A model generated the notes under the pieces. That model did no database searches. It was not told the origin of the DNA and saw nothing but the letters and a program-made list of their open reading frames with translations. The position numbers and the translations under genes were made by a program. Shown here piece after piece: positions 43,132 to 49,764 of a stretch of 64,000 bases of DNA. This DNA is from Bacteroidia bacterium. Its GTDB lineage: Bacteria > Bacteroidota > Bacteroidia > Chitinophagales > UBA2359. The stretch is from positions 1 to 64,000 of the forward strand of contig JAUHXA010000006.1 in NCBI GenBank assembly GCA_030427245.1, written 5' to 3'. Positions within the stretch are counted from its first letter, which is position 1. The number at the start of each line of letters is the position of its first letter.

Positions 43132-44598
43132 ATGAGCCATCATTCTCCATTTTCTACCTATAAGTTTGCCGATGATTTGATAGATGAAGTATGGGACAAA
43201 CCCAACAGTATTCATACTTCTTACAAGGATGTTTACCGTCTTTTTGAGTCCATGAAAATTTCGGATTTCAAAAAACTCAACGAATATGCTCGAATGTCTT
43301 TTTTGAATCAAGGGATTACCTATGCGGTTTATTCGGAGGAGCATGGAGGGACAGAAAAAATCTTTCCTTTCGACTTGTTTCCCAGAATTATTGACAATGA
43401 AGAGTGGGAGCATTTGGAGGCGGGATTGAAGCAGCGAAATATGGCTCTTAATCTGTTTATTAAAGATGTGTACAACAAAAAAAAGATTCTTAAAGATAAG
43501 GTTGTGCCGCAAGAACTTATATTCTCTTCCAATCACTACTGCAAATTGATGGAAAATATTTCTCCTATTGGAGGAATCTATACACATATTTGTGGTACGG
43601 ATTTGATTAAGAACACTGATGGGAATTTTTATGTATTGGAGGACAATTTGAGAAGCCCTTCGGGAGTGAGTTATGTGTTGTCGAATCGGAAGGCATTGCG
43701 TAGGACGCTGATGGATGTTTTTCACAATTTGAAAGTGAAAGCGGTGAGTGAATATCCTTATGAATTGGGGAAAGTATTGGAATCAGTAGCTCCAAAAAAT
43801 GCTTGGTCGCCCCGACCTACTTGTGTCTTATTGACTCCTGGCTTGTACAATTCGGCTTATTATGAGCACTCTTTTTTGGCACAAACAATTGGAATTGAGT
43901 TGGTACAAGGGAGCGATCTTTTTGTGGAGAAAAATGTGGTGTATATGAAAACCATCAAAGGACGTGTGAAAGTAGATGTGATTTATCGCCGTATTGACGA
44001 TGATTTTTTAGATCCAGAGGTATTTCGTTCTGATTCTCTTTTGGGAGTCAAGGGCTTGATGTCGGCTTACAAAAAGGGCAATGTGACGATTGTAAATGCG
44101 CCAGGGACGGGCATTGCAGATGATAAGGCAGTGTGTGCTTATGTGCCAGATATGATTAAATATTACCTCGACGAAGATGCGATTATTTCCAATGTTCCTA
44201 CGTATTTGTGTGAACGAGAGAAGGAACTGGAGTATGTATTGAGCAACATCCAAAAAATGGTTATCAAGCCTGTTGATATGTCGGGTGGTTATGGTGTGGA
44301 AATTTGTGATACCAAATCTGCTGCTGAACTGGATGAAATCAAAGCCAAAGTGAAAGCCGATCCTAGAAATTTCATTGCCCAACCTAAAATGAATCTTTCT
44401 GTTCACAGTACCTATATTGACGAAGACAAAGGATTTCAACCCAGACACATAGACTTGCGAACATTTACTTTATTGGGCAAAGATTACCAATTCACATTGG
44501 AAGGTGGCTTGACGAGGGTAGCCCTCAAAGAAGGAAGTTTGATTGTCAATTCTTCGCAGGGAGGAGGCTCAAAAGATACTTGGGTCATTGAAGCTTAG
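43132..44598 (+). CDS. Circularly permuted ATP-grasp type 2 protein of the Anbu gene set
   Basis: 488 residues of the DUF404/DUF407 (CP_ATPgrasp) family. Diagnostic segments: HICGTDLIKNTDGNFYVLEDN, NLRSPSGVSYVLSNR, GRVKVDVIYRRIDDDFLDP, VVNAPGTG-type (IVNAPGTGIADDKAV) and the late MVIKPVDMSGGYGVEI. ATP-grasp enzymes ligate a carboxyl group to an amine through an acyl-phosphate, so this is a predicted amide- or peptide-forming enzyme. It heads a same-strand run with alpha-E and Anbu and is divergent from the transglutaminase gene. ATG 43132 is chosen because the promoter lies downstream of the alternative TTG. Its TAG stop falls inside a MITE end. Confidence 0.9.
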   Translation: MSHHSPFSTYKFADDLIDEVWDKPNSIHTSYKDVYRLFESMKISDFKKLNEYARMSFLNQGITYAVYSEEHGGTEKIFPFDLFPRIIDNEEWEHLEAGLKQRNMALNLFIKDVYNKKKILKDKVVPQELIFSSNHYCKLMENISPIGGIYTHICGTDLIKNTDGNFYVLEDNLRSPSGVSYVLSNRKALRRTLMDVFHNLKVKAVSEYPYELGKVLESVAPKNAWSPRPTCVLLTPGLYNSAYYEHSFLAQTIGIELVQGSDLFVEKNVVYMKTIKGRVKVDVIYRRIDDDFLDPEVFRSDSLLGVKGLMSAYKKGNVTIVNAPGTGIADDKAVCAYVPDMIKYYLDEDAIISNVPTYLCEREKELEYVLSNIQKMVIKPVDMSGGYGVEICDTKSAAELDEIKAKVKADPRNFIAQPKMNLSVHSTYIDEDKGFQPRHIDLRTFTLLGKDYQFTLEGGLTRVALKEGSLIVNSSQGGGSKDTWVIEA

Positions 44599-44699
44599 TA
44601 AAAAAGAAAAAATAACTCATCGACCAATATTCCCCTTTTGAAAGGGGATGGGGTATGTTAGCAAAAGAAAACGAGGAGTTATTTTTTTACCCTTACTTA
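44595..44699. mobile_element. MITE-like element, two-copy family, copy 2, supplies a stop codon
   Basis: 105 bp. TTAGTAAAAAAGAAAAAATA... to ...CCCTTACTTA, an almost exact match to 26686-26812 apart from the shorter centre. Ends are inverted repeats sharing AAAAAATAACTC. The stop codon of the ATP-grasp gene (44596-44598) is the TAG of the left end. Confidence 0.75.
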
Positions 44700-44840
44700 G
44701 TCATAATGAATTAGGCTTTTGAAGTTTTTTTTAAAAGTTCTCCATAACAAATTAGAAAGAACATCTTTCAAGGAAAAAACTTCAAGGTTTTTATCTCATA
44801 ACGTTTTTTAACAAAATTTAGAACCTTATAAACACTGCTT

Positions 44841-45836
44841 ATGCTTGCCAGAGTTGCTAATTCCCTTTATTGGATGGGGCGTTATATCGAACGCTCAGAA
44901 CACATCGCTCGTTATCTTAATGTTCAGTATTTCTCCACTTTAGATGCTCCAATGACCCAACAAAAAAAGGTTATCTTAAAATCTATTCTGGATATGGTAG
45001 GAGGTGAATTTGAGACTAAAGGGCAAGAACAAACGCAAGAACAGAGTGGACAACAGCAATCTCAGTCACAATCACAAACTCAGACAAATCTGACAGAGCA
45101 AGATATTTTGGTGGCTGTTACCTTCAATTCAGGAAACTCTAATTCTATTTTTTCCAATGTCCAAAATGCAAGAGAAAATGCACGAAGTGTTCGCTATTTG
45201 CTTTCTTCAGGCCTTTGGGAGTCAGTCAACCGATACTATCATTTTATCAAAGAATATTCGGTAGATTTTTACAAAACAAGAGGGCTTTACGACTTCACAA
45301 CCCAAGCAAAAGAGCATTGTACGATTATTCGTTCTTGTGCCAATGGTACACTTTTGCATGATGATATTTGGGCATTTTTTAAACTGGGTATTCATCTCGA
45401 AAGAACCGCCCAAATCATCCGAGTTTTGAACTGCAAAATGAACGATATTCAAGCACTTACTCAAAATGATAAATTTACGCCATTGACTACATATCAGTGG
45501 ACCATTACGCTTAAAATTCTGGAAAGTTTTGATATGTATAGGAGGGTAAATAAAGGCGCAATTAACCAACAAAATGTTTTAGACTTTTTGTTAAGTCACT
45601 CAACACTTCCTTGTTCGGTTGCGTTTTCTTTGGCAAAAGTAAATGAAATGCTCTCTTGCCTTACTTTTGCAGCCAGTTCGGATTCTCGCTTGGGATTTCA
45701 AGCAGGGAAGTTGGCGAGCAATTTTAAGTATTTGGAGTACGAAGAAATTGAAGCCAATCCTCAAGCATTTCTGTTGGCTTCTCTAAGTAAAGTATATCAA
45801 TTACATGATTTAATCGAAAAAGAGTACTTTGAATAA
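44841..45836 (+). CDS. Alpha-E (DUF403) protein of the Anbu gene set
   Basis: 331 residues, all helical. The N-terminus MLARVANSLYWMGRYIERSE is the family signature, and LGIHLERTAQIIRVL and ENARSVRYLLSSGLWE are also typical. A Gln/Ser-rich insert (about 58-80, QEQTQEQSGQQQSQSQSQTQ) interrupts the first third and is unusual. Alpha-E domains have no known catalytic residues and are found beside or fused to the permuted ATP-grasp, probably as a partner or carrier. The gene is separated from the ATP-grasp gene by about 240 bp because of a MITE insertion. Confidence 0.9.
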   Translation: MLARVANSLYWMGRYIERSEHIARYLNVQYFSTLDAPMTQQKKVILKSILDMVGGEFETKGQEQTQEQSGQQQSQSQSQTQTNLTEQDILVAVTFNSGNSNSIFSNVQNARENARSVRYLLSSGLWESVNRYYHFIKEYSVDFYKTRGLYDFTTQAKEHCTIIRSCANGTLLHDDIWAFFKLGIHLERTAQIIRVLNCKMNDIQALTQNDKFTPLTTYQWTITLKILESFDMYRRVNKGAINQQNVLDFLLSHSTLPCSVAFSLAKVNEMLSCLTFAASSDSRLGFQAGKLASNFKYLEYEEIEANPQAFLLASLSKVYQLHDLIEKEYFE

Positions 45837-45902
45837 ACAATAACTATATTTATTGCTTTTTACTTTTTCGATATTCAATCTTAAAAAAATACAAACAACT
45901 AT

Positions 45903-46613
45903 ATGACTTACTGTGTAGGAATAAAAATAAGGCAGGGCTTAGTAGCTATGGCCGATACCCGTATTACTTCTGGAAATGAGACCACAACTGCAAAAAAAAT
46001 TTCACTTCATACGGATGGTCAAAACAGCATTTTTTTGATGACCTCTGGATTGCGGTCTATTCGAGACAAGGCGGTTACTTATTTTGAAGAATTGTTGGAG
46101 CAAAACGAACTCAAATTTGACAAGATGTACAAAGCCGTCAATGCTTTTGGAGAACAATTGCGGCGGGTTGCTCGGGAAGACAAAGCTGCTTTGGCGGAAT
46201 CTGGCTTGATTTTCAACCTGTTTACAATAGTTGGAGGACAGTTGGAAAATGATGATGAACACAAACTGTACCTCCTTTATCCCGAAGGGAATTGGATAGA
46301 AATAGGAGAAGCTTCGCCGTTTACCATTATCGGCAATTCGGGCTATGGAAAGCCTATCTTTAATCGTGCTTTGACCTATGAATCCTCGATTCGCTATGCC
46401 TTAAAGACTGGTTTTCTGTCTTTTGACTCCACAAGGGTCAGCGCAAATGATGTGGGCTATCCTTTGGATGTGGCTATTTTTCGGAAGGATACGAAACAGA
46501 TTGTAGAGAAGCGGTTTTTTGAAGAAGATACGGGCAATATTGGAGAAATCTGGGGCAATCGCTTGAAGGAAGTGATTAAGGAAATACCTGATGATTGGTT
46601 GGGAGAGGTTTAG
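45903..46613 (+). CDS. anbu: Anbu (bacterial proteasome homologue) Ntn-hydrolase
   Basis: 236 residues, a normal length for Anbu. MTYCVGIKIRQGLVAMADTR shows the proteasome-like start: after removal of Met, Thr would be the N-terminal nucleophile, and the aspartate and lysine of the Ntn site are in MADTR and AKKISLH. GNSGYGKPIF and FLSFDSTRVSANDVG are family motifs. Anbu assembles into ring- or helix-like oligomers without a dedicated ATPase; the substrate is not established. It is the last gene of the alpha-E/ATP-grasp run and is followed by a terminator at 46700-46740. Confidence 0.92.
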   Translation: MTYCVGIKIRQGLVAMADTRITSGNETTTAKKISLHTDGQNSIFLMTSGLRSIRDKAVTYFEELLEQNELKFDKMYKAVNAFGEQLRRVAREDKAALAESGLIFNLFTIVGGQLENDDEHKLYLLYPEGNWIEIGEASPFTIIGNSGYGKPIFNRALTYESSIRYALKTGFLSFDSTRVSANDVGYPLDVAIFRKDTKQIVEKRFFEEDTGNIGEIWGNRLKEVIKEIPDDWLGEV

Positions 46614-46694
46614 GGGAGAGGCGAGACGAAAGATGCAAGACCGCTTACGCTGTTGGAAGTCAGACCGTTAATATTCAACAAGCCTTGATGCTAA

Positions 46695-46962
46695 ATAGAA
46701 AACCCATTGAAATTTTCATGAAAACTTCAATGGGTTTTTTAGTAAAAATAAACTCACGCAAACAAACAAAGGGGCTTGTCGTAGCCCTCTTAATTCATTT
46801 ATGGAGATGCTAAATATCTTTCGATAATCCCCTTGCTCTTTAATAAGGCTTAAAGAGGTCTTGACAAGTCAAGATTGAGGCCCGCTCTAGAGACTCTAAG
46901 CGTGTCACCAATATTATTCCTGTTAGGTCTAGCAAGCAGTATTGGAATGTTTACGCGAGTTA
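46695..46962 (-). ncRNA. Candidate structured non-coding RNA
   Basis: A 510-bp gene-free gap holds a perfect TAATTTTGC -7 box on the minus strand (46975-46967), several stable hairpins, and a terminator at the far end. Hairpins on the minus strand: a CCAATA/TATTGG stem inside GCGT/ACGC; CTTGAC/GTCAAG; CTCTTTAA/TTAAAGAG (46857-46850 with 46843-46836); GGGGAT-TATC-GAAA-GATA-...-ATCTCC with a GNRA loop (46832-46803); and GGGCT/AGCCC. The GAAA loop favours the minus strand. It is not a tRNA, tmRNA, SRP or RNase P RNA by any signature I can see. A 6S-type regulator such as the Bacteroidota 6S-Flavo class is one possibility. Confidence 0.4.
46700..46740. terminator. Intrinsic terminator after anbu
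   Basis: AAACCCATTGAA (46700-46711) pairs with TTCAATGGGTTT (46726-46737), followed by TTT. Read on the minus strand it ends GGGTTTTCTATTT, so it could also end a leftward RNA. Confidence 0.85.
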
Positions 46963-47126
46963 TAATGCAAAATTAAGCAAACTTGAATTAATTCTATGCC
47001 TACAAAGAGTTTTTTTTACCAGTTGTAGGATTTCAAATATACTCTATTTTTATTAGAAAAGCAAGTTATTTTACGTAGGACTTCATTGTTGAATGGTTGT
47101 ATTGCTATATTGTTGCAGGGTACTTT

Positions 47127-47885
47127 TTAAGTAGCCAACTCTCCAACATCCGCTTTCAGATAACTCAAAAACAAATCCAATGCCCTGCGTTTGGCACTGT
47201 CTAAATCGTAGCTGATATAGTTTTGAAGGTAATTCAATACATCAAAGTTGGGGTACTGACCTTGATAAAAATCTGCAACTTCTTCAATCTTAGCCATTCC
47301 ATTTCTAAAAGCCTCGTTCAATTTTGCTTCAAAAGTAGGAGCAATTTTCCTGCGAGCCACCCAAGCTGCAAAGACAAACGGCAAGCCTGTAAACCGTTGC
47401 CAAACTTCCGCCAAGTCGTATTCGTAGCGATAATTTTTCGCCAATCGTATCGCCCTATCTCCAATGATTACGCCGGCTGTATTTCCTTCAATCTTATTTT
47501 CATATCCATTGAAGGCAGGAAAAAAAGTAGGAAAAATTTTCCAATAATGCTCGCATAATATTTGCGCCAAGCGAATCGAAGTGCGGGAATGATAATCCAA
47601 AAAAATGGTTTTCACCTGCTGCAAGGGAACTTGACTATAAATCGCAACCGTTTTGACCGCCCCAACTGCGCCAATACAATAGTCGGTAATGATTTCATAT
47701 TGAGGCAACTGTGGTAAAATGGCGACAGGCACCAAACCAATATCCACTTTCCCTTCCATCAAATGCGTAGCGGTTTTGGAGGGAATCGCCAATTCAAGAT
47801 CTATTTTTTCCTTCAATGGCGAGTTTTCTAAACCCATCAAAAAAGGTTTTGTATTGAGGTAGGAAACGGCTGAAAGTTTATACAT
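47127..47885 (-). CDS. mqnA: Menaquinone biosynthesis protein MqnA (chorismate dehydratase)
   Basis: 252 residues of the periplasmic-binding-like MqnA fold. It dehydrates chorismate to 3-[(1-carboxyvinyl)oxy]benzoate, the entry step of the futalosine route. Motifs: VSYLNTKPFLMGL at the start, VDIGLVPVAILPQL, FLDYHSRTSIRLAQIL and GVIIGDRAI. No signal peptide, as expected for the cytoplasmic enzyme. The gene begins inside the 3' end of a histidine-phosphatase gene (8-bp overlap), and MqnE is just upstream of that, so a three-gene unit is likely. Confidence 0.93.
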   Translation of the reverse strand: MYKLSAVSYLNTKPFLMGLENSPLKEKIDLELAIPSKTATHLMEGKVDIGLVPVAILPQLPQYEIITDYCIGAVGAVKTVAIYSQVPLQQVKTIFLDYHSRTSIRLAQILCEHYWKIFPTFFPAFNGYENKIEGNTAGVIIGDRAIRLAKNYRYEYDLAEVWQRFTGLPFVFAAWVARRKIAPTFEAKLNEAFRNGMAKIEEVADFYQGQYPNFDVLNYLQNYISYDLDSAKRRALDLFLSYLKADVGELAT

Positions 47886-48501
47886 AGTTTTCTAAATGGT
47901 CAATGTTATTGAAGAAAGCCAACTCATATTTTTCCCCAGAGGGAATCAGTTTTGCTACTCCTGTATTTTGGTGTATGAACCCTTCCATCTTTGCCAATTC
48001 CCAGCCCAAAAGCATACACAACAATATGCGGGAAGTGCGGCCATGCGTACAAACCAGTACTTTATTGTGGTTTTGTTGGTGAAGCTCATCCACAAACAAC
48101 TTCAATCGCTGCTGCACCTCATAAGGGCTTTCCCCTCCTTCAATTTTCGCATGGTAGTTTCCATCGTTCCACGATTGTCTAAGACGCACATACTCCGCTT
48201 CAGATGCGGGAGTTCCGACCTTGCCTTCGTGCTTTCCCCAATCTATTTCATCCAAATTGGGCGTTTTTTGAATCTCATAACCCAAAGCTTCAAATGGTGC
48301 AATTGTTTCGTGCGTTCTCACCAAAGCCGAAGCATAAATCGCATCAAAATTATGGTTCTTGTATCCTTCAAACAAAGCCTTTGCTTGCTCTCGTCCTTTG
48401 GCATTCAAGGACGAATCAATACCCCGGCCTTGTACAATTCTTGATTTATTGTATTCCGTCTGTCCATGTCGAACGACAAATAGTTCCTTTACTAAGTTCA
48501 T
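47878..48501 (-). CDS. Histidine phosphatase family protein
   Basis: 207 residues. The branch-1 histidine phosphatase signature is FVVRHGQTEYN with the phospho-accepting histidine, and the second catalytic histidine is in VLVCTHGRTSRI. RTHETIAPFEAL and GGESPYEVQQRL are further family positions. Likely a phosphoglycerate-mutase-like phosphatase of small metabolites or sugar phosphates; the substrate cannot be assigned. The overlap with mqnA and closeness to mqnE raise the idea of a pathway-linked dephosphorylation, but the known futalosine steps need none. Confidence 0.85.
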   Translation of the reverse strand: MNLVKELFVVRHGQTEYNKSRIVQGRGIDSSLNAKGREQAKALFEGYKNHNFDAIYASALVRTHETIAPFEALGYEIQKTPNLDEIDWGKHEGKVGTPASEAEYVRLRQSWNDGNYHAKIEGGESPYEVQQRLKLFVDELHQQNHNKVLVCTHGRTSRILLCMLLGWELAKMEGFIHQNTGVAKLIPSGEKYELAFFNNIDHLENYV

Positions 48502-48550
48502 AAAATATTCTTGAAAATTAGTTGGTTGTATAACCTGTTAATAACTCCTC

Positions 48551-48577
48551 CTACATCCTACATCCTACATCCTACTT
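48551..48577. repeat. Short tandem repeat (CTACATC)3
   Basis: Three exact 7-bp units at 48551-48571, then a degenerate CTACTTC, in the gap between mqnE and the phosphatase gene. Length variation here could alter spacing in the unit. Confidence 0.6.
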
Positions 48578-48585
48578 CCCTCTTC

Positions 48586-49764
48586 TCAATTATTAATCAC
48601 AGGCAAGTCAATGAAAATATCCTTAGGTTCTTCAAAAACTTCTTCCGTGTAGTCCTTCAATGTATCATAAACCGTATTTCGTTCCACTGGACGGCGACCC
48701 ACATTTTTAATCATCTTGACCAACTGCTTAGTCGTCAAAGCAGGATTCTGTTCTTCCGAACCCGCCATAGAATAAATTTTGGTTGTATCATCAATCGTAC
48801 CGTCAATGTCATTCACCCCAAAAGCCAAAGACAACTGCGCTGTTTCCCGTCCAATCATGGGCCAGTATGCCTTCAAATGCGGAAAATTATCCATGTAAAT
48901 ACGAGCCACCGCATAGTTTCGCAAATCCTCCAAGACATTCACCTCCGAAATATGCGACATTTCATTGTTGGAATTTCGGAACTTCAAGGGAATAAAGCAG
49001 TTGAAGCCTCCCGTTTTGTCCTGCAAAGTGCGTAGGCGATTCATGTGGTCGACTCGATGATGGTACTTTTCGATGTGTCCATAAAGCATTGTAGCATTGG
49101 TCGGTATATCCAAGCCATGCGCTGCTTCGTGAATCGCCAACCATTGTTCCGAATTGCATTTGTCCTTACAAATAATCTCCCGAATTTCTTCGTCAAAAAT
49201 CTCTGCGCCACCACCAGGCATAGACTGATAGCCCGCTTCCTTCAATTGCTTCAAACCTTCGGTATAGCTCAATTTTGCTTTTTTGAACATGTAAAACAAT
49301 TCAACGGGTGTAAAACCCTTGATATGCAATTCGGGGCGGTGTGCCTTGATGCGGCGAATCAAACTGGTGAAAAATTCCATGTTCATGTGCGGTAATACAC
49401 CTCCAACAATGTGTACTTCAGTGACAGGTTTGCCATCGTAGCTTTTCACAATGTCCATCATTTCGTCCTCCGTATAGACCCAACCTTCTTCTCGCTGCTT
49501 AATCAATCGAGAATAGGAGCAAAATTTACAGGTATAAATGCACAAATTGGTGGGTTCGATGTGGAAATTGCGATTGAAGTAGGTCGTATCTCCATGCCTT
49601 TTTTCCCGTATGTAATTCGCCAATGCGCCCAAATAGCCCAACTCTGCTTTTTCGTACAAAAGTACACCTTCTTCAAAATCAATGCGTTCTCCATTCTGCA
49701 CCTTTTCTGCAATGCGCTTGAAGCGTGTATCTAAAGTTGGATGGTTGATGATGGTTTCTAACAT
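48586..49764 (-). CDS. mqnE: Aminofutalosine synthase MqnE (radical SAM)
   Basis: 392 residues. The radical SAM cluster motif CX3CX2C is C75, C79 and C82 (NLCIYTCKFCSYSR). It joins the MqnA product to S-adenosylmethionine to give 6-amino-6-deoxyfutalosine. MqnE rather than MqnC is favoured by the N-terminal region (FEEGVLLYEKAELGYLGALA), the SYSR following the cluster, and GFNCFIPLKFRNSNNEMSH. GGGAEIFDEEIREIICKDK is typical of the group. It is first in the unit mqnE-phosphatase-mqnA. The remaining pathway genes (mqnB/mtnN, mqnC, mqnD) are not in the window. Confidence 0.93.
   Translation of the reverse strand: MLETIINHPTLDTRFKRIAEKVQNGERIDFEEGVLLYEKAELGYLGALANYIREKRHGDTTYFNRNFHIEPTNLCIYTCKFCSYSRLIKQREEGWVYTEDEMMDIVKSYDGKPVTEVHIVGGVLPHMNMEFFTSLIRRIKAHRPELHIKGFTPVELFYMFKKAKLSYTEGLKQLKEAGYQSMPGGGAEIFDEEIREIICKDKCNSEQWLAIHEAAHGLDIPTNATMLYGHIEKYHHRVDHMNRLRTLQDKTGGFNCFIPLKFRNSNNEMSHISEVNVLEDLRNYAVARIYMDNFPHLKAYWPMIGRETAQLSLAFGVNDIDGTIDDTTKIYSMAGSEEQNPALTTKQLVKMIKNVGRRPVERNTVYDTLKDYTEEVFEEPKDIFIDLPVINN

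What the first reader, a model, noticed from the sequence alone, without database searches (positions are those of the whole stretch)
46695..46975. Candidate structured RNA with its own promoter and terminator
A perfect TAATTTTGC box, at least five hairpins including a GNRA-capped one with a paired closing stem, and a terminator lie in a gap without genes between anbu and mqnA. Length about 265 nt. It might be 6S-type or a new class.
Basis: partly seen in the sequence, partly recalled or inferred. Interest (0 to 1): 0.5.

Follow-up and report, generated by a model that had tools for sequence, protein, structure and literature searches.

The report
Diverged 6S RNA gene of Bacteroidota
The gap holds a gene for a small structured RNA that is almost certainly this bacterium's version of 6S RNA, a known switch that parks RNA polymerase, in a form too diverged for current RNA databases to recognise.

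Summary
The finding is real. On the minus strand, about 46962-46745 (~217 nt), lies a free-standing structured RNA gene with a Bacteroidota -7 box (TAATTTTG) and a U-tract after its closing stem. It has no match above Rfam cut-offs. Homologs occur in 14 of 20 genomes of its family and 76 of 298 of its order, one match per matching genome. A structure-blind alignment of 62 diverged homologs gives the 6S layout de novo: closing stem, central bubble, apical arm. 28 of 32 pairs show two-sided compensatory changes. A covariance model built only from these homologs recovers, at the same place and strand, 10 of 10 fetched Bacteroidales-1 (RF01693) and 8 of 10 fetched 6S-Flavo (RF01685) loci. So groups kept apart in Rfam are one Bacteroidota 6S family. 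The "6S-type" guess holds; "new class" does not. Function (polymerase binding, product RNAs) is inferred. A speculative extra: the apical loop and a bubble UG motif stand a fixed 27-29 nt apart, about the distance between -33 and -7 promoter elements.

The parts
46968..46975 (-). -7 promoter box TAATTTTG (Bacteroidota consensus TAnnTTTG)
   Evidence: Sequence; exact box upstream of the closing stem in 21 of 62 homologs vs 2.2 in shuffles; consensus from PMC7366714, passage
46745..46962 (-). 6S RNA gene, about 217 nt; the 5' end is inferred from the -7 box, the 3' end from the closing stem plus U-tract
   Evidence: Homology and conserved structure; ends inferred
46948..46960 (-). P1a, 5' strand of the closing stem (ACUCGCGUAAACA)
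   Evidence: 13 pairs in the window; in the alignment all 13 outer closing-stem pairs have two-sided changes; swap control 0 of 2000
46752..46764 (-). P1a, 3' strand of the closing stem (UGUUUGCGUGAGU)
46926..46937 (-). P1b, inner closing stem, 5' strand (GCUUG-UAG-CC)
   Evidence: Duplex in the window -12.0 kcal/mol; swap control 0 of 2000 permutations as good
46774..46787 (-). P1b, inner closing stem, 3' strand (GG-CUA-CAAGC)
46911..46925 (-). 5' strand of the central bubble with the conserved UAACA (46925-46921); inferred place where product-RNA synthesis starts
   Evidence: AC invariant or nearly so (A 62 of 62, C 60 of 62, A 59 of 62); start inferred
46788..46801 (-). 3' strand of the central bubble with the invariant UG (46797-46796)
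   Evidence: U and G 62 of 62
46908..46910 (-). P2a, 5' strand (UGG), paired with 46804-46802; weak in the window's copy
   Evidence: Covaries across the family; in the window no better than foreign partners
46891..46901 (-). P2b, apical arm, 5' strand, paired with 46819-46809
46809..46819 (-). P2b, apical arm, 3' strand
46881..46885 (-). Apical internal loop, 5' side (GCGGG)
   Evidence: Conserved block; fixed by selection in 38 of 62 rows
46825..46828 (-). Apical internal loop, 3' side (AUUA)
   Evidence: 62 of 62; fixed by selection in 38 of 62 rows
46877..46880 (-). P3, CCUC, paired with GGGG 46832-46829
   Evidence: 100% of cells paired, few changes
46859..46874 (-). Tip hairpin H1 (UCUUGACUUGUCAAGA)
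   Evidence: At least two hairpins predicted in the tip of 57 of 62 homologs
46836..46857 (-). Tip hairpin H2 (CUCUUUAA...UUAAAGAG)
46745..46751 (-). U-rich tract after the closing stem, likely the RNA's own terminator
   Evidence: At least 6 T in the 12 nt after P1 in 56 of 62 homologs
46697..46738 (.). Perfect hairpin with a T run on both strands; probable terminator of the anbu side and backup for the RNA, not part of the conserved RNA
   Evidence: Sequence and fold; not in the conserved family structure

Best explanation
It is the 6S RNA gene of this bacterium, a relative of Saprospiraceae and Lewinella. RNA polymerase with the primary sigma factor transcribes it from a TAnnTTTG promoter as a free-standing RNA of about 217 nt. 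The RNA folds into a closing stem, a central bubble and an apical arm, which together imitate an open promoter. It traps the polymerase holoenzyme when nutrients are short and is released when the polymerase copies a short product RNA starting in the 5' bubble strand. Shown here: the gene, its homologs, the conserved structure, the conserved promoter box, and common ancestry with Rfam's 6S-Flavo and Bacteroidales-1. Inferred: transcription, polymerase binding, product RNAs and the growth-phase role.
For: De novo consensus of 62 homologs has the 6S layout; 28 of 32 pairs have two-sided changes; covariation 0.561 vs 0.287 shuffled and at most 0.171 slid; swap control 0 of 2000 for P1a, P1b, P2a and P2b. 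R2 matches 10 of 10 fetched RF01693 loci and 8 of 10 fetched RF01685 loci at the same place; independent genome searches share loci: six for R2 and RF01693, three for RF01685 and RF01693, one for R2 and RF01685. One match per matching genome. Promoter box conserved. Flanking ORFs differ among five homologs (by eye). Literature: 6S-Flavo counted as a functional 6S (PMC2864571, passages); 6S and product RNAs seen in B. thetaiotaomicron (PMC7366714, passages).
Against: The window's own copy matches neither RF01685, RF01693 nor RF00013; the link runs through intermediate sequences. The 6S-like fold of the window's sequence is about 7 kcal/mol above its minimum-energy fold and its P2a is weak. Two nearly complete genomes of the same family (G001, G011) have no match, and 222 of 298 genomes of the order have none. 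That the B. thetaiotaomicron 6S RNA is the Bacteroidales-1 RNA is taken from Rfam's description line, not tested. No expression data.
Confidence: 0.88

Rival explanations
1. It is a 6S-like RNA with an Ms1-type role: it binds core RNA polymerase without the primary sigma factor and makes no product RNA.
For: Ms1 of Actinobacteria is structurally related to 6S yet binds core polymerase (PMC4191392, PMC9130861, search listing with start of abstract). Layout alone cannot separate the two.
Against: Product RNAs are reported for the Bacteroides 6S RNA (PMC7366714), and the family is homologous to Bacteroidales-1.
Confidence: 0.06
2. It is a new structured RNA class that resembles 6S RNA by chance and has another function.
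For: No Rfam match above cut-off. The most conserved part is the apical loop GCGGGCC/GGGGAUUA, unusual for 6S, whose sequence identity is described as limited (PMC8876501, passage). Two tip hairpins.
Against: Homology to 6S-Flavo and Bacteroidales-1.
Confidence: 0.04
3. It is an untranslated-region element of mqnA (same strand, upstream) or of the anbu operon.
For: The -7 box lies about 150 nt downstream of the mqnA stop on the same strand.
Against: Homologs L010, L011, L012, L014 and L015 have other flanking ORFs (by eye), and a -7 box precedes the RNA itself.
Confidence: 0.02

Closest known systems
Bacteroidales-1 RNA (Rfam RF01693, described there as '6S-Bacteroidales RNA suggested')
   Same: Closing stem ending in ...ACUC, CUCAUCA or CUCAACA in the 5' bubble strand, GGCGGGCC, two tip hairpins, GGAUUAC, C-N-UG in the 3' bubble strand; found by R2 in 10 of 10 fetched loci
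   Different: The window's copy is not matched by the Rfam model; helix sequences differ throughout
6S-Flavo RNA (Rfam RF01685)
   Same: AAACUCAACA...GGAGUUU bubble border, same layout; found by R2 in 8 of 10 fetched loci
   Different: Shorter tip (the model has 108 positions) and a diverged apical loop; the window's genome has no match
Canonical 6S RNA (Rfam RF00013; E. coli, B. subtilis)
   Same: About 200 nt, closing stem, central bubble, apical arm (layout as described in PMC8876501, passages)
   Different: No match in 40 of 40 genomes searched; two tip hairpins and a strongly conserved apical internal loop

Membership tests
6S RNA (as a kind) | About 200 nt, free-standing gene with its own promoter | tested here: met
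   About 217 nt inferred; promoter box conserved in 21 of 62 vs 2.2 in shuffles; flanking ORFs differ in five loci
6S RNA (as a kind) | Rod: closing stem, open central bubble, apical arm | tested here: met
   De novo consensus and covariation; weaker in the window's own fold energy
6S RNA (as a kind) | Binds RNA polymerase with the primary sigma factor | not testable with these tools
   Needs biochemistry
6S RNA (as a kind) | Serves as template for product RNAs | not testable with these tools
   Needs small-RNA sequencing; reported for Bacteroides (PMC7366714)
Bacteroidota 6S group (RF01685 + RF01693) | Common ancestry with known members | tested here: met
   R2 finds 18 of 20 fetched Rfam-found loci at E up to 0.05; shared loci
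Rfam RF01685 (6S-Flavo) | Match at the gathering score | tested here: not met
   None in the window; none in G000, 0 of 40 relatives over cut-off
Rfam RF01693 (Bacteroidales-1) | Match at the gathering score | tested here: not met
   None in the window; none in G000
Rfam RF00013 (6S) | Match at the gathering score | tested here: not met
   0 of 40 genomes; 4 of 14 control genomes over cut-off

The most novel reading that the evidence does not exclude
Bacteroidota 6S RNAs carry a lineage-specific promoter mimic. The apical internal loop (GCGGG/AUUA) and the UG motif of the 3' bubble strand stand in for the -33 and -7 elements of the unusual Bacteroidota sigma factor and are held at a fixed distance: 27-29 nt in 62 of 62 homologs, exactly 28 in 47, centre to centre about 26 nt, as between -33 and -7. 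The facing strand varies from 33 to 41 nt. Against it: the bubble motif resembles TAnnTTTG no better than scrambled boxes do (rank 14 of 30 and 22 of 30), so the mimicry would be one of position and shape, not of letters.
Probability: 0.22. Interest if true: 0.6.

Novelty: new member of a known kind. Interest (0 to 1): 0.42.

Why it matters
A whole lineage of Bacteroidota has a 6S RNA that Rfam does not call. Joining it with 6S-Flavo and Bacteroidales-1 gives one 6S family across the class with a strongly conserved apical loop. That makes testable how 6S RNA imitates promoters for a sigma factor that reads -33/-7 elements instead of -35/-10.

Tried and rejected
A first consensus from 6 sequences suggested an alternative helix AUUGG/UCAAU plus GCUC/GAGC. 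In the 62-row alignment the G next to last in AUUGG is A in 23 rows, while its would-be partner is C in all 62; the same column covaries with the P2a partner instead. I dropped the helix. Model R1 still contains it; R1 was used only to collect sequences.

The bubble motif as a letter copy of the -7 box was tested and not supported. Rfam E-value hits on the window (microRNAs and the like) I read as chance. The search over the phylum with R2 gave only 3 of 296 genomes, all of the own order, so R2 alone does not reach the whole phylum. Universal presence is not shown (76 of 298 in the order).

Of 94 pattern stretches in named genomes, 80 were listed as loci; R1 confirms 76 of these 80. Not confirmed: L077, L086, L093, L123, so the Chitinophaga record L093 is not counted as a member. 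Of 107 R1 matches I carried 88 into a script and left out 19 that I judged by equal scores to be second records of a genome already taken. 86 had distinct cores, one (L096) lacked flank, and 62 representatives below 85% identity remained. 38 of these 62 come from the pattern scan, so GCGGGCCTCA and AAGGGGATTA are fixed in them by selection; of the helices only CCUC/GGGG lies wholly inside the pattern.

Literature searches. No paper in this library holds both '6S RNA' and 'Chitinophag'. Wehner et al. 2014 on the spread of 6S RNA is not held, so whether this lineage was listed there is unknown. All papers were seen as search listings and passages only.

Full report
WHAT IS THERE. The gap between anbu (stop 46613, plus strand) and mqnA (stop 47127, minus strand) holds no convincing gene. 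Pfam names the neighbours CP_ATPgrasp, Alpha-E, Proteasome (the anbu product) and VitK2_biosynth (the mqnA product). On the minus strand TAATTTTG (46975-46968) precedes a 13-pair closing stem (46960-46948 with 46764-46752), which is followed by a U-rich tract. The strand folds better than all 200 shuffles with or without the downstream hairpin (z -6.3; z -4.07). Rfam finds nothing above its cut-offs in the whole window.

HOMOLOGS. A plain DNA search gave matches in 7 of 60 relatives, G000 included. Five loci were read by eye as true homologs (L010, L011, L012, L014, L015), with conserved blocks around CCTAACA, GCGGGCCTCA and AAGGGGATTA and with other ORFs beside them. A covariance model of the core (R1) matched 13 of 20 genomes of the family and 60 of 298 of the order. 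A better model (R2, 62 sequences) matched 14 of 20 and 76 of 298, with one match in each matching genome. Two nearly complete genomes of the own family (G001, G011) have none. Named carriers include Neolewinella, Lewinella, Phaeodactylibacter and many metagenome genomes labelled Saprospiraceae (confirmed).

STRUCTURE. A structure-blind MAFFT alignment of 62 homologs below 85% identity, folded by RNAalifold, gave without guidance: closing stem P1, an open central region, an apical arm P2a-P2b, a two-pair step, the internal loop GCGGG/AUUA, the helix CCUC/GGGG and a tip. 28 of 32 pairs show changes on both sides. Observed against shuffles: pairing 90.7% against 76.6%, covariation score 0.561 against 0.287 (0 of 500 shuffles reach either); with partners slid by 1-3 columns pairing is 37.1-50.0% and the score 0.091-0.171. 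A second control, exchanging 3' strands between sequences, gave 0 of 2000 permutations as good for P1a, P1b, P2a and P2b. The inner closing stem P1b was noticed by eye and then tested by this swap. At least two hairpins are predicted in the tip of 57 of 62. Against: in the window's own copy P2a is weak, and the 6S-like fold lies about 7 kcal/mol above the minimum (-56.7 with the conserved pairs enforced against -63.9).

PROMOTER AND END. Exact TAnnTTTG lies within 75 nt upstream of the closing stem in 21 of 62 homologs; shuffles give 2.2, the reverse strand 3. In the window alone the box is at chance frequency. The 12 nt after P1 hold at least 6 T in 56 of 62, so the closing stem with its U-tract is the likely terminator. 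The perfect hairpin 46738-46697 lies downstream and is not part of the conserved RNA.

WHICH FAMILY. RF01685 gave one sub-threshold match among 40 relatives (G035, 38 bits), exactly at an R1 locus. RF01693, whose Rfam description reads '6S-Bacteroidales RNA suggested', gave 29.2 bits on another R1 locus (L035). In the same 295 genomes of the class R2 matched 54, RF01685 11 (2 over cut-off) and RF01693 16 (8 over cut-off). R2 and RF01693 share six loci (G542, where RF01693 is over its cut-off, G455, G364, G425, G380, G328); RF01685 and RF01693 share three (G458, where RF01685 is over its cut-off, G318, G583); R2 and RF01685 share one (G035). Searched directly, R2 matches 10 of 10 fetched RF01693 loci and 8 of 10 fetched RF01685 loci (not L178, L180) at E up to 0.05, same strand and place, and nothing else in 62.9 kb. 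Conversely, of 20 R2 loci of the class, Rfam sees RF01693 or RF01685 in 6 at E up to 0.1. I conclude that these are one family. The window's copy itself matches neither Rfam model; the link runs through intermediates.

MECHANISM. PMC8876501 (passages) describes 6S RNA as a rod with a central bubble between two helical arms, with a -35-like region in the apical arm and a -10-like region in the 3' bubble strand, copied into product RNAs that trigger release. PMC2864571 (passages) says 6S-Flavo performs the same function as a validated class. PMC7366714 (passages) reports 6S RNA and two classes of product RNA in B. thetaiotaomicron. By homology the window's RNA most likely does the same; this is inference. 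The inferred start of product-RNA synthesis is opposite UAACA (46925-46921).

A POSSIBLE NEW POINT. On the 3' strand the distance from the AUUA of the apical loop to the invariant UG of the bubble is 27 (1 row), 28 (47) or 29 (14) in 62 of 62; the facing strand spans 33-41. The centres lie about 26 nt apart, the distance implied by the names -33 and -7. A direct likeness of letters to TAnnTTTG was tested and failed. The AUUA is fixed by selection in 38 of the 62 rows; the spacing is not.

VERDICT. Real, conserved, and best read as the diverged 6S RNA of this lineage: a new member of a known kind, not called by Rfam.

Noticed in passing
window 47082-47118: A stretch of about 34 bp near the end of mqnA has further near-copies elsewhere in the genome: at least 8 places at 88-97% identity, a short dispersed repeat.
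   Followed up: no
window 46624-46666: A second short stretch between anbu and the RNA has one further copy in the genome (contig C88, 86% identity).
   Followed up: no
window 43132-46613: CP_ATPgrasp, Alpha-E and Anbu-like proteasome genes in a row on the plus strand.
   Followed up: partly
window 47127-49764: Minus-strand row of mqnA-like (VitK2_biosynth), histidine phosphatase and radical-SAM CofH/MqnC-like genes.
   Followed up: partly
L051, L070, L103 and similar loci, upstream of the closing stem: Several relatives seem to carry an extra 5' hairpin between the promoter box and the closing stem (by eye).
   Followed up: no
L158 2462-2548: A Flavo-1 RNA (RF01705) over its gathering score lies about 1 kb from a 6S homolog; a weaker one lies at a similar distance in L163.
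   Followed up: no
RF01685 and RF01693 loci: Two separate Rfam families, 6S-Flavo and Bacteroidales-1, match the same loci in three genomes and look like one family that could be merged.
   Followed up: yes
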